From Rickettsiales bacterium (lineage in GTDB: Bacteria; Bacteroidota; Bacteroidia; Cytophagales; Cyclobacteriaceae), in the NCBI GenBank assembly GCA_002729235.1, contig PBTY01000106.1:1-64000 (forward strand): DNA of 64,000 nt, written 5' to 3'. Both the position numbers and the translations under genes were made by a program. Shown here one piece after another: positions 350 to 12,071 of the stretch (the stretch's first letter is position 1; every line of letters starts with the position of its first letter). The notes under the pieces were generated by a model. That model ran no database searches. It was not told the DNA's origin and worked only from the letters and a program-made list of their open reading frames with translations.

Positions 350-361
350 TAAAATGAAAAT

Positions 362-435
362 GGCGAGGTAGCTCAGATGGTTAGAGCGTCGGATTCATAA
401 CCCGGAGGTCGGGGGTTCGATTCCCCCCCTCGCTA
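362..435 (+). tRNA. tRNA-Met (anticodon CAU)
   Basis: Cloverleaf by eye: acceptor GGCGAGG/CCTCGCT (one G-T pair), T8-A9, D stem GCTC/GAGC, anticodon loop TTCATAA, T stem GGGGG/CCCCC with loop TTCGATT, discriminator A. CCA is not encoded. The anticodon stem TCGGA/CCCGG has one A-C mismatch next to the loop. CAU could be elongator Met or a lysidine-modified Ile2 tRNA. The acceptor does not show the initiator 1-72 mismatch pattern clearly, so the subtype is open. It is the only complete copy among five related segments. Confidence 0.9.
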
Positions 436-438
436 CTA

Positions 439-468
439 AAGCACTTCAGGAAACTGAGGTGCTTTTTT
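439..468 (+). terminator. rho-independent terminator of the tRNA
   Basis: An 11-bp stem AAGCACTTCAG/CTGAGGTGCTT with a GAAA loop, followed by T6. It lies 4 nt after the tRNA. The same hairpin recurs at 551-581 and 905-936. Confidence 0.9.
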
Positions 469-495
469 ATATCCATCAATTATAAACAAAATATA

Positions 496-581
496 AGCGT
501 CGGATTCTTATCCGCCAGCTGGCGGACGGGGGTTCTGCCGATAGCTACAGAAGCACTTCAGGAAACTGTGGTGCTTTTTTA
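496..581 (+). repeat. tRNA-Met 3' half plus terminator, copy B
   Basis: It starts with AGCGTCGGATTC as in the intact tRNA. The anticodon region is replaced by a perfect 16-bp palindrome TCCGCCAGCTGGCGGA (511-526). It resumes with CGGGGGTTC, a decayed acceptor end (TAGCTAC) and the same hairpin terminator (551-577, one stem mismatch) plus a T-run. Together with the copy at 853-936 it brackets the GIY-YIG gene as a direct repeat. Confidence 0.75.
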
Positions 582-591
582 TTTTAGTGTT

Positions 592-849
592 ATGAACTAC
601 CACTTCGTTTACGCACTATACTCGAATACGCATAATAAAATTTATGTTGGACGAACTTCAAACATTAAAGCTCGACTCATGAGTCACTACTACACTGGCC
701 ACAAAGGATATACTATCAAGTTCAGACCTTGGAAATTGATCTTCCTTGAAAAATGTGATTCCATTACCGATTCAATCATTCGAGAAAAACAATTGAAATC
801 TGCTAAAGGAAGAGACATGATCTGGAAACTAATCCAGTCTAAAGACTAA
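592..849 (+). CDS. single-domain GIY-YIG endonuclease-like protein
   Basis: A small nuclease-fold protein of the UPF0213/GIY-YIG family, 85 residues from the ATG at 592. The family pattern is visible: VYAL in place of GIY (residues 6-9), then YVGRTSN (18-24), a conserved Arg at 28, and IREKQLK with the metal-binding Glu at 65. A GTG start at 568 would add eight residues encoded by the upstream terminator stem and T-run, so the ATG is preferred. The gene is bracketed by two tRNA 3'-half/terminator repeats (496-581 and 853-936), and no other gene is within 180 nt. Family members are proposed DNA-cleaving enzymes, but most are uncharacterised. I infer a link with the repeat array; a housekeeping repair role is the alternative. 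Confidence 0.85.
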   Translation: MNYHFVYALYSNTHNKIYVGRTSNIKARLMSHYYTGHKGYTIKFRPWKLIFLEKCDSITDSIIREKQLKSAKGRDMIWKLIQSKD

Positions 850-852
850 ATG

Positions 853-936
853 CTTCGGATTCTATCCGCCAGCTGGCGGACGGGGGTTCACCGATAGCTA
901 CTAAAAGCACTTCAGGAAACTGAGGTGCTTTTTTTT
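853..936 (+). repeat. tRNA-Met 3' half plus terminator, copy C
   Basis: A third copy of the 3' segment. CTTCGGATTC is followed by the same 16-bp palindrome (865-880), CGGGGGTTC, TAGCTACTA, the terminator stem (905-930, as strong as the original) and T8. It starts 3 nt after the GIY-YIG stop codon, so this hairpin would also end that transcript. Confidence 0.75.
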
Positions 937-1036
937 AATATTATTCCCTTTCATACATCAGTTGATCTCATCTATCAACAATCAGTTACTACTTTCAATA
1001 TATGCGTTAGATTTACGTTAAGGTAAAAATATGTGT

Positions 1037-1507
1037 ATGAAAAACTTTGTCTTAATCGCCATTACTATTTTAACCCTCCTCAGTTCCTGTAAAAAGGATG
1101 ACGAGGGAGTTTCGGCTAATTCCATTGTAGGAACATGGATATCTACTGAAAATAAAATCACTGGATGTACTGATGAAGCTTCTAACGGCACCTTCACTTT
1201 TGACTGTCCTACGAACTGCAGAATCTATTTGTTTGCCATTGACACAATTACAATCGACCAAAACGGCGAAGAACAAACAATTATTAACCAACTATATTCC
1301 CAATCCATCACTACCAACGGAACTACGGTTAATGAATCTGGCACATTCTCATTGAATGCGGGCTTAATCACTCTATGCTACGAAAATGATGAGGAAGAAG
1401 AAATCTGTCGTAACCTGAACATTAGCTTCAATGGCGATAATCTTTTTATCTTCAATACTAATGATCAGACAGGCTGTGAGGAACAAACTACTTACACACA
1501 GCAGTAA
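1037..1507 (+). CDS. outer-membrane lipoprotein, lipocalin-like
   Basis: 156 residues. The N-terminus is a lipoprotein signal peptide (basic MKN, hydrophobic stretch, LSSC lipobox) followed by KKDDEG, the polar tail usual for surface lipoproteins in Bacteroidota. After it comes SIVGTW, the start of a lipocalin-like/DUF-type small beta barrel, with several short beta-strand-like repeats and six Cys that could form disulfides. An in-frame ATG two codons upstream (1031) is equally possible. No partner gene is evident. The function is unknown; the lipocalin assignment rests only on the VGTW motif and the predicted strand pattern. Confidence 0.75.
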   Translation: MKNFVLIAITILTLLSSCKKDDEGVSANSIVGTWISTENKITGCTDEASNGTFTFDCPTNCRIYLFAIDTITIDQNGEEQTIINQLYSQSITTNGTTVNESGTFSLNAGLITLCYENDEEEEICRNLNISFNGDNLFIFNTNDQTGCEEQTTYTQQ

Positions 1508-1579
1508 ATTAGACTTGTATTAGAATTCTGAATTTTTCACTTTGTTCGACCCAAATGGCTTATTATTGCAATAGTCACC

Positions 1580-2458
1580 ATGCCCGAACAAAGTAAAAAC
1601 CCTTTGCGGTTAATCCTATATCGTCTAAGACATTTAGACGAGCTGAAGAGATTTCTTGAAACCAAGGAATTTCAATACACTATTATTGGGTTAATCTTAA
1701 TCAATGCCCTCACTATTGGATTGGAGACCTCCCCTTCCATTACCAATTCTGTTGGTCCCTGGCTAACACAAATTGACAAGTACATTCTCATCGTATTCAC
1801 CCTTGAGATTTCTCTCAAAATAGTTGCCTACAGGCATCGGTTTTTCACTAATGCCTGGAATCTTTTTGACTTTTTGATTGTAGCAATTGCCCTAATACCA
1901 GCGGCCGGACCATTGCACATATTAAGAACACTAAGAATCCTAAGAACTGCACGATTAATTAAAAACGTGCCTAAACTTCGTTTGATTATTGAATCACTTC
2001 TCAAATCCATCCCTAGTATTGGGTGGATCGCTGTTTTATTGTTCATGATTTTTTACATTTTCGCCGTAATTGGTACAGATCTTTATCAGGATGAGTTTCC
2101 ACAATGGTTTGGTGATTTAGGCAAGACATTCTTTACGCTATTCCAGATCATGACTTTGGAGAGCTGGTCAACTGGCATTGCCAGACCGATGATGGATGTT
2201 TTACCGCACGCTTACTTATTCTTTGTTCCCTTCATTCTATTAGCCACTTACACAACACTGAATGTATTCATTGCCATTGTGGTAAATACCATGAATGAGC
2301 TCAACAGAGCAGAGATGAAAGATGATGAGACCAGAACAAGAGAATTGATTCATGAAGAACACCATGAAATTTTATCTTACCTCAAAAGCATCCAGCGAAA
2401 AATGAATAGTCTTGAAAAAAGACTTGACGAAAAAGAACAAGATTCTGAAGTCCAGTAA
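1580..2458 (+). CDS. voltage-gated sodium channel, NaChBac type
   Basis: 292 residues, one six-helix domain of the bacterial voltage-gated ion channel family, acting as a homotetramer in the inner membrane. S1 starts near residue 33. S4 is recognisable by Arg at 116, 119, 122 and 125 (every third position). The pore loop carries TLESWS (192-197), nearly identical to the TLESWAS filter of NaChBac, which implies Na+ selectivity. S6 is about 213-240 and ends in NTMNELNRAEM. The C-terminus (255-290) is a charged amphipathic helix, as in the family's tetramerisation coiled coil. It stands alone. A paralogue with the same filter is at 31417-32259. Sodium channels of this class are common in marine and alkaliphilic bacteria. 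Confidence 0.92.
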   Translation: MPEQSKNPLRLILYRLRHLDELKRFLETKEFQYTIIGLILINALTIGLETSPSITNSVGPWLTQIDKYILIVFTLEISLKIVAYRHRFFTNAWNLFDFLIVAIALIPAAGPLHILRTLRILRTARLIKNVPKLRLIIESLLKSIPSIGWIAVLLFMIFYIFAVIGTDLYQDEFPQWFGDLGKTFFTLFQIMTLESWSTGIARPMMDVLPHAYLFFVPFILLATYTTLNVFIAIVVNTMNELNRAEMKDDETRTRELIHEEHHEILSYLKSIQRKMNSLEKRLDEKEQDSEVQ

Positions 2459-2511
2459 AACTTCAAAAATCACATTAGTCATAAAATGATTTAACATTCC
2501 AGACCGTTAAG

Positions 2512-2519
2512 TAGTTTTG
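2512..2519 (+). promoter_or_regulatory. candidate -7 box of the DinB-like gene
   Basis: TAGTTTTG matches the Bacteroidota -7 consensus TAnnTTTG. It ends only 9 nt before the ATG at 2529, so transcription from it would leave almost no leader. No convincing -33 TTTG was found at the usual distance. Confidence 0.35.
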
Positions 2520-2528
2520 TAAGTAACT

Positions 2529-3089
2529 ATGGAAAACGGATATCTGGACGAGTGGATTAAGCAAGCTGAAGAAGTACCAGCAAAAGTTGAAACTCTTTTT
2601 AGCAAAATCACTATAGAAGAACTCAATCACAAACCAAATTCTGAACAATGGAGTATTGGCGAGTTAATGGACCACATCATGGTGACCAATTCTCTATACA
2701 TCCCCAAATATCAAAAAGTCATTGAAGGCAATCATCGAAATCCATTTTCTGCTCGCTTCGGTTATGTCACGGATTTTCTGGGCAAATCCATCCTTCAATC
2801 TGTAAATCCGGAGAATCCTAAAAAGCTCAAAACGGTCAAGAAATTTGAACCAGTAAAAAGCGAATTCACATTAGATATAGCTGAAGAATTCAGAACAAAG
2901 CAAGTTGAACTGATTGAATTAGTTAAACAGACTGATTCAGTCAATCACAACAAAACTTACATCAACTCACCTGCTAGCCCATTGATTGTTTATTCATTGG
3001 AATATGCAAATCGCATTATTCTCTGGCATGAATTGAGGCATATCCAGCAAGCAAACGACTTGCTTAAACAAGAAGTGGTGAGAGTCTAA
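2529..3089 (+). CDS. DinB family protein
   Basis: 186 residues with the four-helix DinB/YfiT architecture. The family's metal-binding histidines are in place: H49 in LMDHI, and H167 and H171 in WHELRHIQQA near the C-terminus. The family includes thiol transferases (bacillithiol or mycothiol dependent) and DNA-damage-induced proteins of unknown activity. The sequence GELMDHIMVTNS...WHELRHIQQ is typical of the DinB_2 group in Bacteroidota. It stands alone between a sodium channel gene and a membrane protein gene on the same strand. The substrate cannot be inferred. Confidence 0.82.
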   Translation: MENGYLDEWIKQAEEVPAKVETLFSKITIEELNHKPNSEQWSIGELMDHIMVTNSLYIPKYQKVIEGNHRNPFSARFGYVTDFLGKSILQSVNPENPKKLKTVKKFEPVKSEFTLDIAEEFRTKQVELIELVKQTDSVNHNKTYINSPASPLIVYSLEYANRIILWHELRHIQQANDLLKQEVVRV

Positions 3090-3178
3090 TTACAATTCAG
3101 CAACTAAATACGACAGTTCAGTAATTTCAATTCTCAATCTACCATCCATCAGGCTTGATTTGAAGAAAATTCAAGCCT

Positions 3179-3850
3179 ATGCAAACTTTTCTAACATATT
3201 CACACGCAGCAGCAGGAGGAATAGTACTTCTTCTTGGACTTTTTAACTTTATCAATAGAACTGGTAACAAGAACCATATCTTAACTGGGAGAATTTATGT
3301 TGGAGCAATGTGGTGGATCTGCCTTAGTGCTTTCATCATCATCGCCTTTTATCGATTCAGTTTCTTTCTGATGGTCATTGGCGTATTGACCTTTTACTCT
3401 TCCTTTGTCGGAGTTCGTGTACTACGAAGAAGAAAATCGAACCGTGAAAAATGGTACGATTGGGTGGTATCCTTTTTAACCTCTGCCTTTGGTCTGGGCT
3501 TGATTGGGTACGCCATTTATATCTTTATTCAGGTTGGTTCTTTCCATTGGCTTGCTGCCCTGTCCGTATTGTTTGGATACTTTACCATGAGTAGTGGAAT
3601 AAAAGACATTAGCTTCTATCTATCCAACCGAAAGAAGGAAGACTTATGGTGGTTATCTCAACACATCAACGCTATCGGGGGAAGTTACGTAGCAGCAATC
3701 ACTGCCTTTGCAGTGCAAAATAGTCGATTCTTCATGCCTGAAGACTATAATTGGTTGGCATGGGTAGTACCACCGGCACTTCTTACTCCTCTGATATCCG
3801 GTATTGCCAAACGCTATAAACAAAAAAGAGCCAGACTCGCTGGCTCTTAA
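3179..3850 (+). CDS. multi-pass membrane protein, DUF2306-like
   Basis: 223 residues with about six or seven hydrophobic segments (roughly residues 8-26, 42-62, 62-80, 96-118, 122-142, 165-178 and 192-208). An N-terminal His (SHAAAGG) and the block NHILTGRIYVGAMW are the kind of conserved His/Gly-Arg features seen in DUF2306 and other small predicted heme-binding membrane families. No catalytic motif is clear. The 3' end of the gene forms half of a hairpin terminator, and argJ lies downstream on the opposite strand. The function is unknown. Confidence 0.7.
   Translation: MQTFLTYSHAAAGGIVLLLGLFNFINRTGNKNHILTGRIYVGAMWWICLSAFIIIAFYRFSFFLMVIGVLTFYSSFVGVRVLRRRKSNREKWYDWVVSFLTSAFGLGLIGYAIYIFIQVGSFHWLAALSVLFGYFTMSSGIKDISFYLSNRKKEDLWWLSQHINAIGGSYVAAITAFAVQNSRFFMPEDYNWLAWVVPPALLTPLISGIAKRYKQKRARLAGS
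3826..3850. terminator. bidirectional hairpin between converging genes
   Basis: Perfect 9-bp stem AAGAGCCAG/CTGGCTCTT with loop ACTCG. It overlaps the last codons of the membrane protein gene, with A-rich and T-rich flanks on its two sides. argJ ends 48 bp further on the other strand. Confidence 0.65.
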
Positions 3851-3897
3851 TTTCTTATGACGTTGTAAGGATGCTGAAATAAATTCAGCATGACTTT

Positions 3898-5121
3898 CTA
3901 TGTCGTGTACATTGAATTGAACATCACATAATCGGTTGTCAGGTCTGTCCCCCAGCCTATGGCTGAAGCTCTTCCTTCTCTTAATTTCATTTGAATGATG
4001 ATTTCAGACTGTTTAAGTATTCGCTTCACCAGATTCATATCAAACTCCAAAGGCCTTCCTTGTTCCAGCATCTTCACCTCCTCATTCTCATTACCCAACC
4101 ATAAGTCAACTTTGTCTGGATCAAATGCTATTCCTGAACGGCCCATAGCCGCCAAAACACGGCCCCAGTTTGGGTCACGACCGAACATCGCTGTTTTAAC
4201 CAAAGACGAGTCAGATACGACCCGAATCATCTTTCTAGCCTCTTCTTTGGATTTAGCTCCATTGAGGCGATATTCTATAAATTTACTAGCACCCTCACCA
4301 TCAGAGATGATCAGTTTGGCCAGATAAGTCATTAATTCATGTAGTTTTTCCTTAAAGGTCTGATAATGAGGGTCGCTTGCTGAGGTGATCATTTCATTAT
4401 CCGCCAAGCCATTGGCCATAATACTAGCCATATCATTAGTGGACGTATCACCATCTACCGTGATCATATTAAAAGAGTCATCCACAGCTTCCTTGAAAGC
4501 TTTATCCAGTAATTTTTGATCGATATTAAGGTCAGTAAAAGCAAAGGCCAACATGGTAGCCATGTTCGGATGAATCATTCCAGAACCTTTAGCGATTCCA
4601 CCTATATTGATGGTATTTCCATCGATCTGAAACTCTACAAAACCTTCTTTGGCGAAAGTATCTGTAGTTAGAATTGCATTAGCCGCAAAACTTCCAGCCC
4701 GTGAGTTCTCAGAGATTTTTTTGACATTTTCTTTGATGCCTTCTACCACCTCTTCAGTAGGAAAAGCTTTACCTATGATCCCAGTAGACGCTACCATTAC
4801 CTTATTGGTATCGATATTAAACTCTTTTGCAGCTGCCTCAGCCATTGCCAAAGCACCTTCTTCACCTTGCTTTCCAGTCACTGCATTTGCATTACCAGAA
4901 TTACAGATAATTGCCTGAGCCACATTATTGGTTTCATCAAGATGCTTTTTAGTCAACTTGATAGGCTCTGCAACAACTAGATTTTGAGTAAAGGTAGCTG
5001 AAACTTTAGCCGGTACTTCCGAATATAATATAGCCAGATCTCTGCGCATGGATTTCACCCCGGTATGGGCTCCCCAGCACTTGATCCCTCTAACATTCGT
5101 TATATTTCTAATCATGTTCAC
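3898..5121 (-). CDS. argJ: glutamate N-acetyltransferase / amino-acid acetyltransferase
   Basis: 407 residues, full length for ArgJ. It moves the acetyl group from N-acetylornithine to glutamate, closing the acetyl cycle of arginine synthesis, and bifunctional members also use acetyl-CoA. The self-cleavage site is in HPNMATML, where Thr189 becomes the N-terminal nucleophile of the beta chain. The oxyanion pair lies in MVASTGIIG (109-117). ICNSGNANA (72-80) and RDPNWGRVLAAMG in the C-terminal half are also diagnostic. It is the last gene of argD-argC-argJ on this strand, 17 nt after argC. Bifunctionality cannot be told from sequence by eye. Confidence 0.95.
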   Translation of the reverse strand: MNMIRNITNVRGIKCWGAHTGVKSMRRDLAILYSEVPAKVSATFTQNLVVAEPIKLTKKHLDETNNVAQAIICNSGNANAVTGKQGEEGALAMAEAAAKEFNIDTNKVMVASTGIIGKAFPTEEVVEGIKENVKKISENSRAGSFAANAILTTDTFAKEGFVEFQIDGNTINIGGIAKGSGMIHPNMATMLAFAFTDLNIDQKLLDKAFKEAVDDSFNMITVDGDTSTNDMASIMANGLADNEMITSASDPHYQTFKEKLHELMTYLAKLIISDGEGASKFIEYRLNGAKSKEEARKMIRVVSDSSLVKTAMFGRDPNWGRVLAAMGRSGIAFDPDKVDLWLGNENEEVKMLEQGRPLEFDMNLVKRILKQSEIIIQMKLREGRASAIGWGTDLTTDYVMFNSMYTT

Positions 5122-5138
5122 TATTACAAAAGTTTAGA

Positions 5139-6176
5139 TTATGGTTGTAATGGAGTTATGGTTAAGCCCGTAGTTTCTTCCAACCCGAGCATGATATTCA
5201 TGTTTTGAACTGCCTGACCAGCAGCACCTTTCACCAGGTTATCAATCACACCAATACTAATGATGGTGTTGGTACGATCGTCATAGGTTACGAATAAGTC
5301 GCAGTAGTTAGTACCTCTAACCTGCTTTAAATTGGGCAGATCATCTCCTACTCTGACGAACGGTTCATTGTCATAGTATTCGTGATACAACTTGTTTAAA
5401 TCTTCTGAAGATATATCTCTCGTCGGACGAGTGTAACACGTGGAAAGAATTCCTCTATCTACAGGCAGCAAATGAGGTGTAAACAATACAGAAGCGTCAG
5501 AATTAGCATACTTACCAATAATTTCTTGTATCTCGATCGTGTGACGGTGACTCTTGACTCCATAAGCGGTGAAGTTGTCATTAACCACTGGAAAGTGTGT
5601 ATTAGGCTTAGCCTTAATTCCAGCACCAGTAACCCCAGTCTTAGAGTCAACTGTGATGTGATCTTTATCAATAATTCCTTCTTTCAACAAAGGAGACAAT
5701 GCCAGAATAGCTGAAGTGGGAAAACATCCCGGATTCGCTACCAATTTTGCTTCTGCAATCCGTTTTCTGAACAATTCAGGTGATCCGAACACTGCAGACT
5801 CAAATCCCAGTTCAAAATTGTGATCTTTCTTATACCATGACTCATAGACTTTTTTGGAAGACAATCTAAAATCACCGCTGAGGTCAACGATTTTAAAATT
5901 TTTGTCATGGTTTTCCTTCACAAAATCCATGGAGACACCATGCGGTAGTGCAAGAAAAACTAGATCTAACTCGTAATTAGGAATATCCTCGATACTCACC
6001 AATGTTGGTTCAAAAATACCTCGGTACTGCGGATGCACATCCGAGAATTTCTCACCCTTTCTACTTTCTGACGTTATTGCACTAATGTGAATATCCGGAT
6101 GATTAATAAGGATTCTTACCAACTCTGACCCGGTATATCCGGTAGCTCCTACAATGGCTACGTTAAATTTTGACAT
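5139..6176 (-). CDS. argC: N-acetyl-gamma-glutamyl-phosphate reductase
   Basis: 345 residues. It reduces N-acetylglutamyl phosphate to the semialdehyde with NADPH, the third step of arginine synthesis. The Rossmann motif GATGYTGSELVRIL is at 10-23. The catalytic cysteine is C151 in ANPGCFPTS, the family signature, and HRHTIEIQEI further on carries the active-site His. The length is normal for type 1 ArgC. It sits directly behind argD (the argD stop and the argC start abut at 6176/6177) and ahead of argJ, so the three are very likely one transcript. Confidence 0.95.
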   Translation of the reverse strand: MSKFNVAIVGATGYTGSELVRILINHPDIHISAITSESRKGEKFSDVHPQYRGIFEPTLVSIEDIPNYELDLVFLALPHGVSMDFVKENHDKNFKIVDLSGDFRLSSKKVYESWYKKDHNFELGFESAVFGSPELFRKRIAEAKLVANPGCFPTSAILALSPLLKEGIIDKDHITVDSKTGVTGAGIKAKPNTHFPVVNDNFTAYGVKSHRHTIEIQEIIGKYANSDASVLFTPHLLPVDRGILSTCYTRPTRDISSEDLNKLYHEYYDNEPFVRVGDDLPNLKQVRGTNYCDLFVTYDDRTNTIISIGVIDNLVKGAAGQAVQNMNIMLGLEETTGLTITPLQP

Positions 6177-7373
6177 TTATCTATGTTCTTTGATTGATTT
6201 CAATAATACTTCGATGACGGTTTCCAGATCCTCCTGAGGAATATTCAATGGAGGAACCAAACGCACTACATTACCTGCAGTAGCATTGGCTATCACATGA
6301 TGCTTCAACATCATAGTTGTTACGATTGGCTTTGACTCAACAGTTAATTCAATTCCTAACATCAAACCATATCCTCTAACTTCTTTTATCTCTGGGTAGC
6401 CTGCTTTAACAGACTCTATTTTATCTTTTACCCACTGGCCTTTCTTTTCAGCTTCTGCCAATAAGTTTTCTTCTTCTATCACTTCCAAATTGGCTAACGC
6501 AGCCGCACACACCAATGGATTTCCACCATAAGTGGTACCATGATCTCCCCAGTCGATGGCCTGACCTGCTTTTTCGGTTGCTAATACTGCACCTATTGGG
6601 ACACCAGCTCCCAATCCCTTTGCCAGCGTCATCACATCTGGCTTTACACCAAAATGCTCATGAGCAAACATTTTCCCTGTTCTAGCTATACCACACTGAA
6701 CTTCATCAAATACCAATACCAGATTGTGCTCATCACAAAATGCCCTGAGATCTTTTAGGAATTGCTTATCTGCAGGATTGATACCTCCTTCGCCCTGAAT
6801 GGGTTCTAACATGATACCTCCTACTTCATCAGTCACCATGGATTTAATGGCATCTAAATCATTAAATGGAGCATGCATGAAACCTTCTGGAATTGGAGCG
6901 AACCCATTCATCATCACTTCTTTTCCTGTAGCAGCGACTGTAGCGAGAGTTCTACCATGAAAAGCATTTTTCATCGCAATGATTTTGCTACCTCTTCCAT
7001 TTTTAGAAGCATATTTACGAGCAATTTTGATGGCTCCTTCAGCTGCCTCCGCACCACTATTCCCAAAGAATACACGTTGCATCCCTGACAATTCAGCTAA
7101 CTTCTTAGCCAACTTCACTTGAGGTTCGCTTAAGAAAAAATTGGAGATGTGCACCAATTCATGCGCTTGTTTACTGATGGCCTCAGCGACTTTAGGGTGA
7201 CAGTTTCCAACATTGTTCACTGCAATTCCGGCAAGAGCATCGATGTACTCATTACCCTCCATGTCCCAAAGCCTGGATCCACTCCCTTTTTTGAATGCTA
7301 GCGGATACCTTTTGAATGTTGGTAAATAATATTGTTGATCTAACTGATGTAATTCTTCTGTTGAATAACTCAT
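6177..7373 (-). CDS. argD: acetylornithine aminotransferase (class III)
   Basis: 398 residues, a PLP-dependent class-III aminotransferase. The PLP lysine is K252 in TLAKGLGAGVPIG, and the pyridine-nitrogen Asp is D223 in VFDEVQCG. The phosphate-binding block GNSGAEAAEGAIK is at 104-116 and NAFHGRTLA at 136-144. It converts N-acetylglutamate semialdehyde to N-acetylornithine. It is first of the argD-argC-argJ set, which supports the ArgD reading over GABA or ornithine aminotransferase. A second, 374-residue homologue is next to proA at 18299-19423. Confidence 0.9.
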   Translation of the reverse strand: MSYSTEELHQLDQQYYLPTFKRYPLAFKKGSGSRLWDMEGNEYIDALAGIAVNNVGNCHPKVAEAISKQAHELVHISNFFLSEPQVKLAKKLAELSGMQRVFFGNSGAEAAEGAIKIARKYASKNGRGSKIIAMKNAFHGRTLATVAATGKEVMMNGFAPIPEGFMHAPFNDLDAIKSMVTDEVGGIMLEPIQGEGGINPADKQFLKDLRAFCDEHNLVLVFDEVQCGIARTGKMFAHEHFGVKPDVMTLAKGLGAGVPIGAVLATEKAGQAIDWGDHGTTYGGNPLVCAAALANLEVIEEENLLAEAEKKGQWVKDKIESVKAGYPEIKEVRGYGLMLGIELTVESKPIVTTMMLKHHVIANATAGNVVRLVPPLNIPQEDLETVIEVLLKSIKEHR

Positions 7374-7622
7374 TGGTTATTTTGATATGTTTATTGCTCT
7401 TTTGGTTTATTGATTAAAAAAATTTGGAGCTACCTGACAGCTACTTTGAGTGAACATCATACAAGATCTGATCAATGATCATAGCATATTCGCCATACTG
7501 GATAACTATTGTTTCTTTCAGGTCGATAAGTGTGTTCGTTAAAATTCAGGATAAAAATATTGCTCTAATTAAGTAAGAGTCGAAGAGCACAAAATGTTTG
7601 AAAAAAAGCAAATTTAAGCATT

Positions 7623-8783
7623 TTATTTAACAACCGTCCGAGGAATAGCCGCTGGAAGTCTGCTCAACATCTCGTTATTAAGTAGCTGAGTAACCTGTGT
7701 AAAAGAGCTGATATTTATTGTATTGCTTTTTTGTCTCCCAACTAAAACCACCTCTTCTCCCACTTCTACTCCTTTAATATGTGACACATCTACCATGAAT
7801 AAATTCATATTGATCAGTCCAACAACTGGTGCTTTCTTCCCTTTGATCAGTACGTGTCCACGATTTGACTGTCCACGAGGGTAGCCATTGGAATAGCCAA
7901 GTGGCAACACCGCCACTTCCATGTCTCGAGTAGCCTGGTAACTGGTGCCATACCCTATAAACTCCCCTTCTTTCACATGACGAAGGTCCATGACATCCGT
8001 TTTCCAGGTAAAGAGTCGCTTTAGTGCGCCATTGGAGCTTGTAGCACCTATTTCCTGAAGATGTGCATAATAGATGTCAGGACTTGGCCAAAAGCCATAT
8101 TGGGCTACACCGATTCTTACCATATCATATACTGTGTCAGGATACGCTAATGCTGCCGCAGAACAGGCAATGTGTTTGATTTTAGGCAGGATGTTCTTCT
8201 TCTTGCATTGTTTCAAAAACTCTTTGTAACGAGCATGCTGAGAATCAATCTTAAACTTATTGGCGAAACTCTCTGCTCCACCGAAATGCGTACACAAACC
8301 AGTGAACTCGATAAACTCCGCATTCTTCTTTAAGAAGGTAAGAGTTTTAGGAAAATCTGAAGCTTGCATCCCAGTTCTATTGGCGCCTGTCTCCACCTCT
8401 ATATGCACATGCGCCTTTTTTTCAAGCGCTCTCGCTTTCTGAAGAACAATTTCTAATCGCTCGTAATTGAAAACAAAAAACTCCACCCCATTTTCAATAG
8501 CCCAATCAATGTCTTCGTCATACAAAATACCCATGACCATCACGTCAGCTTTATCTGATTTGGCATCAAGAACTTCTTCTGCCTCAAAAGCAGACGCAGT
8601 AGCAAAGTGATTCACTCCAGATTTTTCTGCCATGCGAACAAAAGGTCCTATTCCATGGCCATAGGCATTGGCTTTTACAACAGATGAAATACGTACTCCA
8701 TCACCTACTTTCTTGCGAATGAAGTTGACATTGTTCGTTAATGAAGATTGACTCAGTTCTATTCTTGATGAGTGTCTTACCAT
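7623..8783 (-). CDS. alr: alanine racemase
   Basis: 386 residues, a fold-type III PLP racemase. PLP lysine K37 lies in VVKANAYGHG, the second catalytic base is Y278 in IGYGTSY, and RIGVAQYGFWP (223-233) is the family's R-x-G block. MVDVSH (330-335) and PLGYSNGYPRG are also conserved. It is a complete stand-alone enzyme, not fused to MurF as in many Bacteroidota, so it may not be the cell-wall housekeeping copy. Its start overlaps the end of the 662-residue gene by 7 nt, indicating translational coupling, and that gene follows an ATP-grasp ligase. I infer that it supplies D-alanine or another D-amino acid to a product made by its neighbours. Confidence 0.9.
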   Translation of the reverse strand: MVRHSSRIELSQSSLTNNVNFIRKKVGDGVRISSVVKANAYGHGIGPFVRMAEKSGVNHFATASAFEAEEVLDAKSDKADVMVMGILYDEDIDWAIENGVEFFVFNYERLEIVLQKARALEKKAHVHIEVETGANRTGMQASDFPKTLTFLKKNAEFIEFTGLCTHFGGAESFANKFKIDSQHARYKEFLKQCKKKNILPKIKHIACSAAALAYPDTVYDMVRIGVAQYGFWPSPDIYYAHLQEIGATSSNGALKRLFTWKTDVMDLRHVKEGEFIGYGTSYQATRDMEVAVLPLGYSNGYPRGQSNRGHVLIKGKKAPVVGLINMNLFMVDVSHIKGVEVGEEVVLVGRQKSNTINISSFTQVTQLLNNEMLSRLPAAIPRTVVK

Positions 8784-10765
8784 ATTTTTTGTTGATTATT
8801 CCAGGTATATGATTTACCCCAGCTGGACTTAGCCAGGTGTTCTACTTCTTTAAGTTCCGAATCAGGAACCTGATTTACTTTTTGAGCTACGTCTAAATGA
8901 CTGTAGTGAAATGCGTAAATACGCGCTGCAAACTGCGCTATCGGCAAACTAGATTCTCCGTGTTTTTCTCCATAACCAAAAACGGCGGGTTTAATCCCTT
9001 GTCCCCAATCTTGTCGTCCTTCATTGTTCGGATTTAAGAAATAAGCTCTAGCCTTCCCATTTTGATCTTTGGCTATTCGCAACAAGGAAATGGCATGAAA
9101 CCCAACCATATCTCCCTTAGACGATGTAATGAATATCCCAACCGGGTTCGGATAAGACATCTCCCGATCTCCATTAAAGTCTGGATGAAATGCGGCGTAA
9201 AAGATTCGTATAAATCCTTCAAAATCCAGAATAGAGTTGGTCAAATAATCGTAGCAAGAAGCAAAACTCAATTGTATCCACTGCCCATACATAGCAGGAT
9301 TCACCCACTTATGCGGGTCTTCAGCTCTTCCCGCAGATCGCTTCATCATCTCATTATATATCTTATCCAAATGAGGTACCAACAAAACAGAAACCGGATC
9401 GAGATTGTAATCCAATTTCTCAACCAATCCTTTGCCTAGTTGATTAGAAACCAAATCGTGATTTTCAAATCGCATAATCAAGTTGTTTTGAGTAGCAACT
9501 GTAATGATCATGTCTATGAGCTTCGCAGGAGCATGCTGACTCCACATACTCAGTCCTCTTGCTGACTGACAAGTAGGGTTATTTCCTTGCCCTACTCCCA
9601 ATGGTTGTCCCAGCATCTTAATAACTCCACCTAATAGGTATTGCTGTGCTGTCACATCCATATCTGGATGAATCAAAGATTTAATGATCCGCTTTTCTAC
9701 TTGCGGGTTCAATTTGATCTTTCTCAAATTCTCTAACCCAACTCGAACAGGTCGTCTGGAGAACAAGTTTTTACCCAGCATTCTAGCCAATCCATAAATG
9801 CATTGACAGTTATCAGGGCTAACAATTTCCAGAATCAAGGTTGTCACCAACTCATGAAATTTTTCCCATTCTGCTTTACCTCGATCATTCAAATCCAGAC
9901 AATTGGGCACTAGCTCAGGATGCTCTTTGACCAATTTCTTCAACAACAAAGGATGGTATTGACTTACCAAACCAGTTTGGTGCATGTAATAGCCAAAACT
10001 GTCAGCTTCATTCGTCAGAGTTCTGAGATTAGCATTATTCAAAAACTCCTGATAGTCTTCTAGGGATTGGTGAAGTATTGCATTCTGTGAAGGTTTGTAG
10101 ACCGAATTGATGTAAAGTCTTACCGATTTATCGACATCTCGATCTCCAGAGGTATCGAATCGAGTATCAACCAAACGTATTAATTCTCGGGCCTTTCTGG
10201 TAACAATTGGACGTTGCTCGCAAATCAAACGGATTTCCTCTGCCAGCTTATCATATACTCCTCCAAGGTCAATCTCCGAAATGATGAATCCGAACAGATT
10301 AAATGCCTTTTTCAGCTCACGCTCACTCATTACGGTACGAGTCTCTTCGGCTGGCTCTTTCAATGCAAACTCCAGATTATGAACAACCACCTCTTCCAGG
10401 AAATTCTGTGCTTCCGAGGCGTTAATCACCTCACTTTGCTGATCGCCATTGGCATAGGCCAACAATCTAAGCTCAGACATTAATTCGAAACTAGAAGATG
10501 GATGACCTGCCTTTAAGGTTCCTTTCACTAATGCTGGAACTAACTTATCAGGTTCATTCCATGCCGTACCAAAGAAAATACCAGCCTGATCTAATTCTCC
10601 GCTTTTCTCATATAAGTAAGACAGACCATCTCTGGTCAAACTGAGAATATCAATCTGTGATGCGAGCTTGGCTGCTTTATCTCTTTTGGTAAAATCAGGA
10701 GCCTCTTTGAACTCTAAAAAACTGTTTTCAAAATTTTCGAATACCCTATTGGAGGTTTCTTGCAT
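8777..10765 (-). CDS. uncharacterised 662-residue protein, possible Cys-His-Asn hydrolase fold
   Basis: I do not recognise the family. The first 380 residues look alpha-helical, with no signal peptide or membrane segment, so it should be cytoplasmic. The C-terminal part has an order typical of papain-like peptidases: C399 in NPTCQSARGLSMW, H557 in VGFHAISLLRI, and N578/N580 in AYFLNPNNEGRQDWG. The spacing words Cys...GLSxW, HA, and xNPN resemble YopT/AvrPphB-type (C58) cysteine peptidases, where the last is usually DPN. This is my inference from motifs. The gene lies 82 nt after the ATP-grasp gene and overlaps alr by 7 nt. An acyl-transfer or peptide-trimming role beside a ligase would fit, but a catalytically dead scaffold is also possible. 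Confidence 0.75.
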   Translation of the reverse strand: MQETSNRVFENFENSFLEFKEAPDFTKRDKAAKLASQIDILSLTRDGLSYLYEKSGELDQAGIFFGTAWNEPDKLVPALVKGTLKAGHPSSSFELMSELRLLAYANGDQQSEVINASEAQNFLEEVVVHNLEFALKEPAEETRTVMSERELKKAFNLFGFIISEIDLGGVYDKLAEEIRLICEQRPIVTRKARELIRLVDTRFDTSGDRDVDKSVRLYINSVYKPSQNAILHQSLEDYQEFLNNANLRTLTNEADSFGYYMHQTGLVSQYHPLLLKKLVKEHPELVPNCLDLNDRGKAEWEKFHELVTTLILEIVSPDNCQCIYGLARMLGKNLFSRRPVRVGLENLRKIKLNPQVEKRIIKSLIHPDMDVTAQQYLLGGVIKMLGQPLGVGQGNNPTCQSARGLSMWSQHAPAKLIDMIITVATQNNLIMRFENHDLVSNQLGKGLVEKLDYNLDPVSVLLVPHLDKIYNEMMKRSAGRAEDPHKWVNPAMYGQWIQLSFASCYDYLTNSILDFEGFIRIFYAAFHPDFNGDREMSYPNPVGIFITSSKGDMVGFHAISLLRIAKDQNGKARAYFLNPNNEGRQDWGQGIKPAVFGYGEKHGESSLPIAQFAARIYAFHYSHLDVAQKVNQVPDSELKEVEHLAKSSWGKSYTWNNQQKIW

Positions 10766-10788
10766 TGTTGATTGGGGTCAATAAAGAA

Positions 10789-10816
10789 CTTCTCGACAGC
10801 ATACACCATCGAGAAG
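10789..10816 (-). other. intercistronic stem-loop in the ATP-grasp operon
   Basis: Perfect 8-bp arms CTTCTCGA/TCGAGAAG around a 12-nt loop, in the 82-nt gap after the ATP-grasp gene. On the transcribed strand it is followed by TTCTTT, a weak U-run. It could act as a partial terminator that lowers expression of the two downstream genes, or as a processing site. Confidence 0.5.
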
Positions 10817-10847
10817 CAATAAATAATTGTATCTGATTATCAATTAA

Positions 10848-12071
10848 TTACACATAGAAATCTACTTCTTCATAGTGAAGCAGCAGCTCTGTCATTCGGT
10901 CCGGGTCTTCACCTTTGAAGTTAATCGTACCAAAGTGATTACCGAAACCTTCTCGACTATCGCTGATTTTCTGAGTACTCAAAGGTGGCACCAGCGTGTG
11001 ATCCACAAAGTAAGGTTCGTTATTCAGTTCCTCAGGAATCTCAAGTTTTGAGAAAGTTCGTTTCTGAGGATAAATCATCACGTTACCGTTGTAGTTATCT
11101 GGGAAATAATCTTTAGATGGGAATATTTCATCCAATTCTTCCTCTGTAATGTTTGGATCGTGACATAGTACAAATGCTGCTAGTGCATCAAATCCCCAGG
11201 ATTTACTAGCTAGTTCTAAAATATGACCTCCAGGAATTCTACAAGCTGTTTCTCCAAAGTTCAATTCATCATTTTCCGTTAAGAACCACTCTGGGTGCAC
11301 CATACCATACTCTATACCGAAGATGTCTACCAACTTCTGAACATGCTTATGAATGAGCTCTCGCTTAGAATTGAGGTAATGTCCTTCTGGAATGAAGTTG
11401 GAGTATCCAAGATGCACGTATTCTGTGATATTCAAGAAACGTACTTTTCCTTTGTTGATGAACGCCTCACAAGAAAACTCACGACCAGGCAAGTGGCTCT
11501 CAGCCAGACAAGGGAAATCGCTATCCTCACACTTCTCGTCAATATCTTTCATAGACTTCAATAACCTATGACCTACTGTACCTGCTGAAGCAAATGGTTT
11601 GATATGCACCCAGCTATCTTCCTCTCCATCTAATTGAAGATTGGCTTCATTGAGACGTTTCATGAAGGCTTTGACGCCTTCTTTGTTGTAAACTTCTTCA
11701 AATAGGCCTACTCGTAAGCCACCAATAAGGGCTTTACGCTTCATCATCGCCTTATTTCTAAATAAGAAAGCACGATTTAGTACACGTGGATCTCCACGAT
11801 AGATAGAATTCAGCGCTCCAGCCCATTCCACTGTTTCTTCAAACAACGGAACGGCCACATCTACTCCATAAGGTTGTAATTTTTCAAATAAATCCAACGA
11901 ATTGGACGTATCACTCCATTCATTTAGCTGATAAGAGACAAACGGAATGTTATTTTCTTTAGCATAAGGTTCAAAATCAGGAAAGGAAACCACAACATAG
12001 GGCTTACCAAGTTTTTCCATACTTTCGATGACGGGCAAACTCCACCCCATTAATGCGAAACATTTAGCCAT
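10848..12071 (-). CDS. ATP-grasp ligase
   Basis: 407 residues, cytoplasmic, an ATP-grasp carboxylate-amine ligase of the general type that forms peptide or amide bonds through an acyl phosphate. The N-terminal domain starts CFALMGWSLPVIESMEKLG. The adenine-side lysine is K158 in WVHIKPFASAGTVG, a glycine-rich loop. LAESHLPGREFSCEAFI (189-205) is the acidic strand pair. NFGETACRIPGG (271-282) carries the Mg-binding Glu274 and the Arg/Gly of the EinxRxgG motif. The family includes L-amino acid ligases and many biosynthetic enzymes, so the substrate is open. It is first of a three-gene set with a putative Cys-hydrolase and an alanine racemase. The 283-nt gap upstream, divergent from a lipoprotein gene, should hold the promoter. 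Confidence 0.88.
   Translation of the reverse strand: MAKCFALMGWSLPVIESMEKLGKPYVVVSFPDFEPYAKENNIPFVSYQLNEWSDTSNSLDLFEKLQPYGVDVAVPLFEETVEWAGALNSIYRGDPRVLNRAFLFRNKAMMKRKALIGGLRVGLFEEVYNKEGVKAFMKRLNEANLQLDGEEDSWVHIKPFASAGTVGHRLLKSMKDIDEKCEDSDFPCLAESHLPGREFSCEAFINKGKVRFLNITEYVHLGYSNFIPEGHYLNSKRELIHKHVQKLVDIFGIEYGMVHPEWFLTENDELNFGETACRIPGGHILELASKSWGFDALAAFVLCHDPNITEEELDEIFPSKDYFPDNYNGNVMIYPQKRTFSKLEIPEELNNEPYFVDHTLVPPLSTQKISDSREGFGNHFGTINFKGEDPDRMTELLLHYEEVDFYV

What the first reader, a model, noticed from the sequence alone, without database searches (positions are those of the whole stretch)
7623..12071. Three-gene operon: ATP-grasp ligase, 662-residue triad protein, alanine racemase
The last two genes overlap by 7 nt, and the first is separated from them by 82 nt containing an 8-bp stem-loop. 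ATP-grasp K158/E274 and racemase K37/Y278 are intact. The middle protein is unfamiliar but has C399 (CQSARGLSMW), H557 (GFHAISL) and N578 (YFLNPNNEG), resembling the Cys-His-Asp/Asn order of YopT-type peptidases. A ligase plus a D-amino-acid source plus an acyl-transfer-type fold suggests production of a D-amino-acid-containing peptide, or of an amide-modified target.
Basis: partly seen in the sequence, partly recalled or inferred. Interest (0 to 1): 0.78.

Follow-up and report, generated by a model that had tools for sequence, protein, structure and literature searches.

The report
Ligase and papain-like enzyme metabolic operon
A marine bacterium carries an undescribed, widely conserved gene pair, a peptide-bond-forming ligase plus a papain-like enzyme of no known family, together with its own amino-acid racemase and ornithine-making genes, which most likely builds a small peptide-like molecule that protects cells from salt.

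Summary
The operon is real. Its core is two genes, not three: an L-amino-acid-ligase-type ATP-grasp enzyme (ATPG) and the 662-aa protein (MID). ATPG lies directly upstream of MID in 93 of 101 MID places not at a contig edge. MID has no credible match in Pfam, NCBIfam, PHROGs or PADLOC, yet at least 566 relatives. Its C-terminal half is modelled as papain-like; C399, H557, N578 and Q393 are invariant in 105 of 105 aligned copies. The racemase follows MID in 53 of 105 places but in none of 34 Bacillota-type loci, so a D-amino acid is no universal ingredient. Three linkages point to a diamino-acid solute. A second arg set, holding the genome's only argJ, adjoins the operon in several lineages. 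A beta-lysine acetyltransferase (AblB) adjoins it in 13 loci. An extra ectoine synthase (EctC) follows MID in two. Best reading: a biosynthetic operon for an ornithine- or acetyl-diamino-acid-based peptide osmolyte, MID being a cysteine acyltransferase. The product is not identified. Ectoine-synthase co-occurrence in 299 genomes was not significant (p = 0.16).

The parts
10848..12071 (-). ATPG: 407-aa ATP-grasp ligase of the L-amino-acid-ligase type
   Evidence: Pfam ATP-grasp_4 E 2.9e-5, 24.2 bits, just under its cut-off of 27; profile hit to 4wd3 E 2.7e-12; model pLDDT 91.6 and Foldseek hit to RizA E 1.8e-23; K158, E274, R278 invariant in 89/89
10789..10816 (-). 8-bp-stem hairpin between ATPG and MID, possible attenuator
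   Evidence: of 11 loci folded, hairpins also lie in the same gap in L014 (near-identical sequence) and, with other sequences, in L015, L023 and L028; none where the gap is short
8777..10765 (-). MID: 662-aa protein, helical N-terminal region (about 1-357) plus papain-like domain (about 358-621)
   Evidence: no credible family match; model pLDDT 91.1, pTM 0.85; papain-like alignments
9569..9571 (-). codon of C399, predicted nucleophile, first residue of a helix
   Evidence: invariant 105/105; helix 399-411
9587..9589 (-). codon of Q393, six residues before C399, predicted oxyanion-hole residue
   Evidence: invariant 105/105; the papain spacing is recalled
9095..9097 (-). codon of H557, predicted general base
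   Evidence: invariant 105/105; in strand 553-566
9032..9034 (-). codon of N578, predicted third triad member
   Evidence: invariant 105/105; just after strand 572-577
7623..8783 (-). ALR: alanine racemase of a separate, operon-bound group
   Evidence: TIGR00492 281.5 bits over cut-off 168; K37, Y278 51/51; A379 51/51 where six of six solo paralogues fetched have N or D and the fused Alr has R
6177..7373 (-). argD, acetylornithine aminotransferase (second arg set)
   Evidence: TIGR00707 491.4 bits over cut-off 410.05
5139..6176 (-). argC, N-acetyl-gamma-glutamyl-phosphate reductase (second copy)
   Evidence: TIGR01850 426.9 bits over cut-off 233.6; another argC (39% identical) on contig C21 in a larger arg cluster
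3898..5121 (-). argJ, ornithine acetyltransferase/N-acetylglutamate synthase
   Evidence: TIGR00120 453.6 bits over cut-off 298; no other argJ in the genome except the identical copy on contig C1

Best explanation
The operon makes a small, amide-bonded amino-acid solute (osmolyte). In this organism, dedicated argJ/C/D genes (with an argB from elsewhere) make L-ornithine from glutamate. ATPG activates one amino acid as an acyl phosphate and joins it to the amine of a second, as L-amino-acid ligases do. MID takes the acyl group of that product, or of a related donor, onto C399 and passes it to the final amine, giving the finished neutral or zwitterionic compound. ALR supplies D-alanine, or another D-amino acid, as a building block in the Bacteroidota and Balneolota version. 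In some Bacillota, AblB acetylates the side-chain amine instead, and in two lineages an extra EctC cyclises the product. Shown here: the gene set, its conservation, the modelled folds, the invariant residues and the linkages. Inferred: the substrates, the acyl-transfer step and the solute role.
For: ATPG-MID adjacency in 93 of 101 non-edge places, in records titled Bacteroidota/Balneolota genera, Gemmatimonadetes, Bacillota genera and Halomonas. Ligase fold nearest RizA; BL00235 and BacD are ranks 3 and 4. Papain-like domain and invariant Q-C-H-N, with many other invariant polar residues, as I would expect of a specific small-molecule enzyme. Second arg set: operon-type argC and argJ are each in 9 of 10 MID-positive relatives and 2 of 29 MID-negative ones, Fisher p = 2.4e-6. 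In 6 of those 9 genomes the set adjoins the operon (G000, G001, G002, G004, G005, G033). It also adjoins in G262, on the other side; argC and argB lie just upstream of MID in a Planctomycetota MAG (L068) and argC upstream of ATPG in another MAG (L082). The genome's larger arg cluster on C21 has no argJ. AblB adjoins in 13 of 34 Bacillota-type loci (over its cut-off in the three copies scanned). EctC stands 51 and 64 nt behind MID in L076 and L092 (over its cut-off), each genome having one more EctC elsewhere. Named hosts are mostly marine, soda-lake or halophilic genera (titles; habitats recalled).
Against: No product, expression or salt-induction datum was seen. Ectoine synthase is not significantly more frequent in MID-positive genomes of the Halobacillus order: 18 of 47 against 69 of 252, p = 0.16. 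G017 has the operon without the second arg set; G003 and G022 have the set without the operon; in G006, G008 and G016 the set lies elsewhere in the genome. The Fisher p treats related genomes as independent (5 of the 10 are one genus) and overstates. In the seven Cyclobacterium-type loci the adjoining arg genes form a cluster with argG and argF and may be there by chance. ArgJ is common elsewhere in the phylum, 155 of 395. 21 of 34 Bacillota-type loci have no AblB within the stretch held. The helical N-terminal half of MID could equally bind a protein partner. The habitat argument has no control set.
Confidence: 0.45

Rival explanations
1. MID is an amidase that breaks the ATPG product, so the pair sets the level of a small peptide by synthesis and hydrolysis, as glutathionylspermidine synthetase/amidase does (recalled).
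For: Papain-like folds are mostly hydrolases; calpains and other peptidases lead the list. Orphan MID paralogues in L133-L135 stand divergent from a gene that exceeds the cut-off of an NCBIfam dipeptidase model in the two copies scanned.
Against: Tandem MID-MID copies behind one ligase (L072, L136, L137) and a nearly fixed order are odd for a degradative partner. EctC and AblB in line suggest synthesis.
Confidence: 0.22
2. ATPG and MID modify a protein or a small precursor peptide: the ligase adds an amino acid and MID, gripping the target with its helical half, transfers or trims it.
For: The helical half resembles HEAT/ARM-type solenoids in weak matches (E about 0.3 to 2).
Against: Metabolic partners (arg, AblB, EctC) recur in the neighbourhood instead. 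The solenoid matches are weak. My maps list only ORFs of 80 or 90 aa and more, so small precursor or carrier genes were not tested.
Confidence: 0.13
3. The operon makes a secreted D-amino-acid peptide (antibiotic or signal).
For: A dedicated racemase distinct from the fused and the solo Alr. RizA and BacD make antibiotic dipeptides (recalled).
Against: Among 149 flanking proteins the only exporter-type family in the 25 of 189 families shown is ABC_tran, in 2. The racemase is absent in the Bacillota-type loci. Spread across phyla is unlike most antibiotic clusters (recalled).
Confidence: 0.1
4. The operon serves cell-wall peptides: ornithine and D-alanine joined by the ligase and cut by a papain-like enzyme.
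For: D-alanine and ornithine are wall components in some Bacillota (recalled).
Against: The ligase is nearest the L-amino-acid type by structure; no D-Ala-D-Ala ligase is among the 50 rows shown. I see no signal peptide in MID by eye (not tested). AblB and EctC do not fit.
Confidence: 0.05

Closest known systems
L-amino-acid ligases RizA (4wd3), BL00235 (3vot), BacD/YwfE (3vmm)
   Same: ATP-grasp fold, Foldseek E 1.8e-23 to 4.5e-20; profile hit E 2.7e-12 to 4wd3
   Different: About 15-18% identity; below the Pfam ATP-grasp_4 cut-off; fixed partner MID, which those systems lack as far as I recall
Papain-like cysteine enzymes (clan CA: calpain, staphopain, C1-type aminopeptidases)
   Same: Order Gln-Cys-His-Asn, Cys at a helix start, His in a strand; aligned over 358-621
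   Different: No sequence family match; 357-residue helical region in front; paired with a ligase
Glutathionylspermidine synthetase/amidase; BtrJ-BtrH of butirosin; phytochelatin synthase after GshB (all recalled)
   Same: An ATP-grasp ligase working with a papain-like amide enzyme
   Different: None of their families was listed for these proteins; ligase and papain-like enzyme are separate genes here
N-acetylglutaminylglutamine amide (NAGGN) osmolyte pathway (genes recalled; solute named in PMC1224877, passages seen)
   Same: Would also be an ATP-grasp-made small-peptide solute
   Different: No acetyltransferase domain in ATPG and no NAGGN synthetase model listed for it
AblA/AblB N-epsilon-acetyl-beta-lysine and EctABC ectoine pathways
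   Same: AblB and EctC genes stand beside ATPG-MID in some Bacillota
   Different: ATPG and MID belong to neither pathway; I noted no ectA or ectB beside these two EctC genes, by eye only

Membership tests
L-amino-acid ligase (ATP-grasp) | Fold nearest to solved L-amino-acid ligases | tested here: met
   Foldseek ranks 1, 3 and 4 are RizA, BL00235 and BacD, E 1.8e-23, 1.5e-21 and 4.5e-20; rank 2 is 4dim, a putative phosphoribosylglycinamide synthetase
L-amino-acid ligase (ATP-grasp) | Conserved ATP and Mg ligands | tested here: met
   K107, K158, E261, E274, R278 invariant in 89/89; their roles are recalled, not mapped on a structure
L-amino-acid ligase (ATP-grasp) | Dipeptide formation with ATP to ADP | not testable with these tools
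   needs an enzyme assay
Papain-like (clan CA) | Papain-like fold of the catalytic domain | tested here: inconclusive
   Papain-like chains lead the list, best Z 7.3, rmsd 4.4, 203 residues, but Z is below 8 and the best Foldseek E is 0.023
Papain-like (clan CA) | Gln-Cys-His-Asn order, invariant | tested here: met
   Q393, C399, H557, N578 in 105/105
Papain-like (clan CA) | Triad residues close in space | not testable with these tools
   model coordinates are not released
YopT-type (C58) peptidases | Sequence or structure match to C58 | tested here: inconclusive
   no C58 family in the Pfam list at E 1; no C58 chain noticed among the 50 rows shown, which excludes nothing
Alanine racemase | TIGR00492 equivalog score | tested here: met
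   281.5 bits over cut-off 168
Alanine racemase | Catalytic Lys and Tyr | tested here: met
   K37 and Y278 in 51/51
Alanine racemase | Alanine as the substrate | not testable with these tools
   needs an assay; A379 and N327 differ from the solved Alr rows shown and from the fused Alr
NAGGN synthetase | Acetyltransferase domain joined to the ATP-grasp domain | tested here: not met
   ATPG, 407 aa, shows no acetyltransferase match
Glutathionylspermidine synthetase/amidase | Ligase and amidase in one chain | tested here: not met
   separate genes

The most novel reading that the evidence does not exclude
MID founds a new family of cytosolic papain-like acyltransferases. With its ligase it makes a so far unknown class of ornithine-based (or acetyl-diamino-acid-based) peptide osmolytes, spread across at least five phyla by record title. 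In some Bacillota the product is further cyclised by a second, operon-bound EctC, which would give one class of unexplained extra EctC proteins a function.
Probability: 0.3. Interest if true: 0.87.

Novelty: new variant of a known kind. Interest (0 to 1): 0.72.

Why it matters
A gene pair found in at least 566 matched places of a species-level genome set has no model in four family libraries and no description in the papers that my searches listed. If it makes an osmolyte, it would help explain how bacteria without ectoine synthase, such as the window's own genome (no PF06339 match), cope with salt. It also gives a concrete setting for the open question of what solitary or extra EctC proteins do (called unresolved in PMC5924519, passages seen). 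The test is simple: delete one gene in a laboratory Halobacillus or Marinoscillum strain and compare metabolites at low and high salt.

Tried and rejected
Viral origin: 20 pattern matches in viral contigs, none encoding a relative. Defence or phage role: no PADLOC or PHROGs match at E 0.1 for any of the three proteins. Ectoine as a general partner: not significant. YopT relation: no support found, not excluded. Mechanosensitive channels near the operon (L125; 3 of 149 flanking proteins, L094's probably among them) are common genes and I give them little weight. Racemase as housekeeping enzyme: rejected, since an 808-aa frame taken to be a MurF-Alr fusion (not scanned) and a solo Alr lie elsewhere in the genome. 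Literature: eight searches listed no paper that I recognised as describing the operon; only openly licensed PMC papers are held, listings were capped, and only three papers were opened, as passages. One Rfam search of window 1-30000 gave only the tRNA.

My first regular-expression check of the triad was off by one residue and useless; the alignment replaced it. One search tried to compare the operon EctC with canonical copies but recovered, of six extra loci, only the operon copy itself, so it says nothing about canonical EctC.

Full report
WHAT IS THERE. The 7-nt overlap and the 82-nt gap with an 8-bp perfect stem are correct. Next on the same strand come argD, argC and argJ (7373-3898), each over the cut-off of its NCBIfam model.

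HOW CONSERVED IT IS. Among 39 genomes around the window's own (own included), 10 have MID, and the same 10 have full-length ATPG and the operon-type ALR (68% identity or more); the other 29 have none of them. In a spread of 395 genomes of the phylum, 4 have MID, own genome included. In 299 genomes of the order of a Halobacillus genome, 47 have MID. One of 72,556 plasmid records has it, from Halomonas, again with ATPG in front. The window is probably Marinoscillum: L014, titled Marinoscillum pacificum, is 97% identical in MID.

THE CORE IS TWO GENES. I mapped 102 sequences by tblastn: the window, the 80 kept loci, the Halomonas locus and 20 chosen stretches, with some redundancy between them. 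Of 105 MID places, 4 lie at a contig edge; of the other 101, 93 have ATPG directly upstream on the same strand. The 8 others are second copies (L085, L136, L137), orphan paralogues (L133-L135), L067, and L068, where ATPG lies on the other strand. The tandem second copy of L072 was merged with the first in this map. ALR follows MID directly in 53 of 105 and in none of the 34 Bacillota-type loci (23 of the 80 by title or, for L072, titled Chryseobacterium, by company; 11). So the racemase is an accessory of one branch.

ATPG. Its Pfam score is just under cut-off, but its profile finds the L-amino-acid ligase 4wd3 (E 2.7e-12). Its model (pLDDT 91.6) is closest to RizA, with BL00235 and BacD at ranks 3 and 4. 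It is a peptide-bond-forming ligase by fold; its substrates are unknown.

MID. No credible family match: one protein in four libraries and 56 members in two (four families, each weakly hit by a single member). The model is confident (pLDDT 91.1, pTM 0.85). The first 357 residues are helical. Residues 358-621 align to calpains (Z 7.3, rmsd 4.4, 203 residues) and 388-622 to staphopain (Z 6.6, rmsd 3.9, 137 residues). These Z values are middling, and the Foldseek E-values are weak (best 0.023), so the fold alone would not settle the matter. The residue pattern does more: Q393, C399, H557 and N578 are invariant in 105 of 105 aligned ORFs, among them copies only 31% identical to the window's. C399 opens a helix, H557 sits in a strand and N578 follows the next strand, as in papain (recalled). 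Distances between them could not be measured.

ALR. The genome has an 808-aa frame with an Alr part, taken to be the MurF-Alr fusion, and a solo Alr besides. Operon ALRs share A379 (51 of 51), where six of six solo paralogues have N or D and the fusion has R. This suggests a special role or substrate, not housekeeping.

ORNITHINE LINK. The operon-type argC and argJ are each present in 9 of 10 MID-positive relatives and in 2 of 29 others (p = 2.4e-6, which treats related genomes as independent). In 6 of the 9 the set adjoins the operon; in G006, G008 and G016 it lies elsewhere. It also adjoins in G262, on the other side of the operon; argC and argB precede MID in a Planctomycetota MAG, and argC precedes ATPG in another MAG. 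The genome's other arg cluster, on C21, reads, by my reading of the ORFs and tblastn of argG, argC, argF and argB, acetyltransferase-argG-argC-proC-argF-argB-argE-argH, and the only argJ of the genome is the operon one with its contig-C1 copy. In relatives of this kind arginine is made through N-acylated citrulline (recalled), so ArgJ would be the route to free ornithine; an ArgE-type deacetylase could in principle also supply some. Against the link: ArgJ is common elsewhere in the phylum (155 of 395), G017 lacks the set, G003 and G022 have it without the operon, and the Cyclobacterium loci adjoin a cluster that includes argG and argF. The window's genome and G005 lack the operon-type argB, which G001, G002 and G004 have.

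SOLUTE LINK. In 13 of 34 Bacillota-type loci AblB adjoins: 10 upstream on the same strand, 3 downstream and convergent. The three copies I scanned exceed the AblB cut-off. In L076 and L092 an EctC gene follows MID by 51 and 64 nt, and each genome has one more EctC elsewhere. N-epsilon-acetyl-beta-lysine (acetyltransferase gene known) and ectoine (made by EctC) are compatible solutes (PMC1224877 and PMC5924519, passages seen). Named hosts are mostly marine, soda-lake or halophilic genera; the habitats are recalled and there is no control. A direct test, ectoine synthase against MID in 299 genomes, gave 18 of 47 against 69 of 252, p = 0.16: no significant link.

READING. I propose a biosynthetic operon for a small amide-bonded amino-acid solute built on ornithine or an acetylated diamino acid, with ATPG as ligase and MID as cysteine acyltransferase. 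The main rival is that MID hydrolyses the ligase product. Known pairs of an ATP-grasp ligase and a papain-like enzyme (glutathionylspermidine synthetase/amidase, BtrJ-BtrH, phytochelatin synthase; all recalled) show that both modes exist.

NOVELTY. Each half belongs to a known kind; I found no description of the pairing, the MID family or the genomic setting in the listings of eight paper searches.

Noticed in passing
window 361-8414: Contig C1 of the same genome repeats this stretch at 99.9% identity, beginning inside ALR. It may be an assembly duplicate or a strain mixture (contamination 4.64%).
   Followed up: partly
window 7374-7622: Relatives L014, L015 and L144 have a gene of about 270 aa (no NCBIfam match at 1e-6 in L014) and argB between ALR and argD; both are missing here, and no operon-type argB is found in the genome.
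   Followed up: partly
L133, L134, L135: A MID paralogue without ATPG stands divergent from an M20-type dipeptidase gene. Ten of the 47 MID-positive genomes have a second copy of this identity band (53-54%), of which I looked at the surroundings of three.
   Followed up: partly
L072, L136, L137: Two MID copies in tandem behind one ATPG, the second shorter and more divergent yet with the triad intact.
   Followed up: no
L015, L023, L028 between ATPG and MID: Stable hairpins of unrelated sequence in the same intergenic gap (11 loci folded), suggesting a recurrent drop in expression between the two genes.
   Followed up: no
L125 14123-15037: A small-conductance mechanosensitive channel gene directly follows argJ behind the operon.
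   Followed up: no
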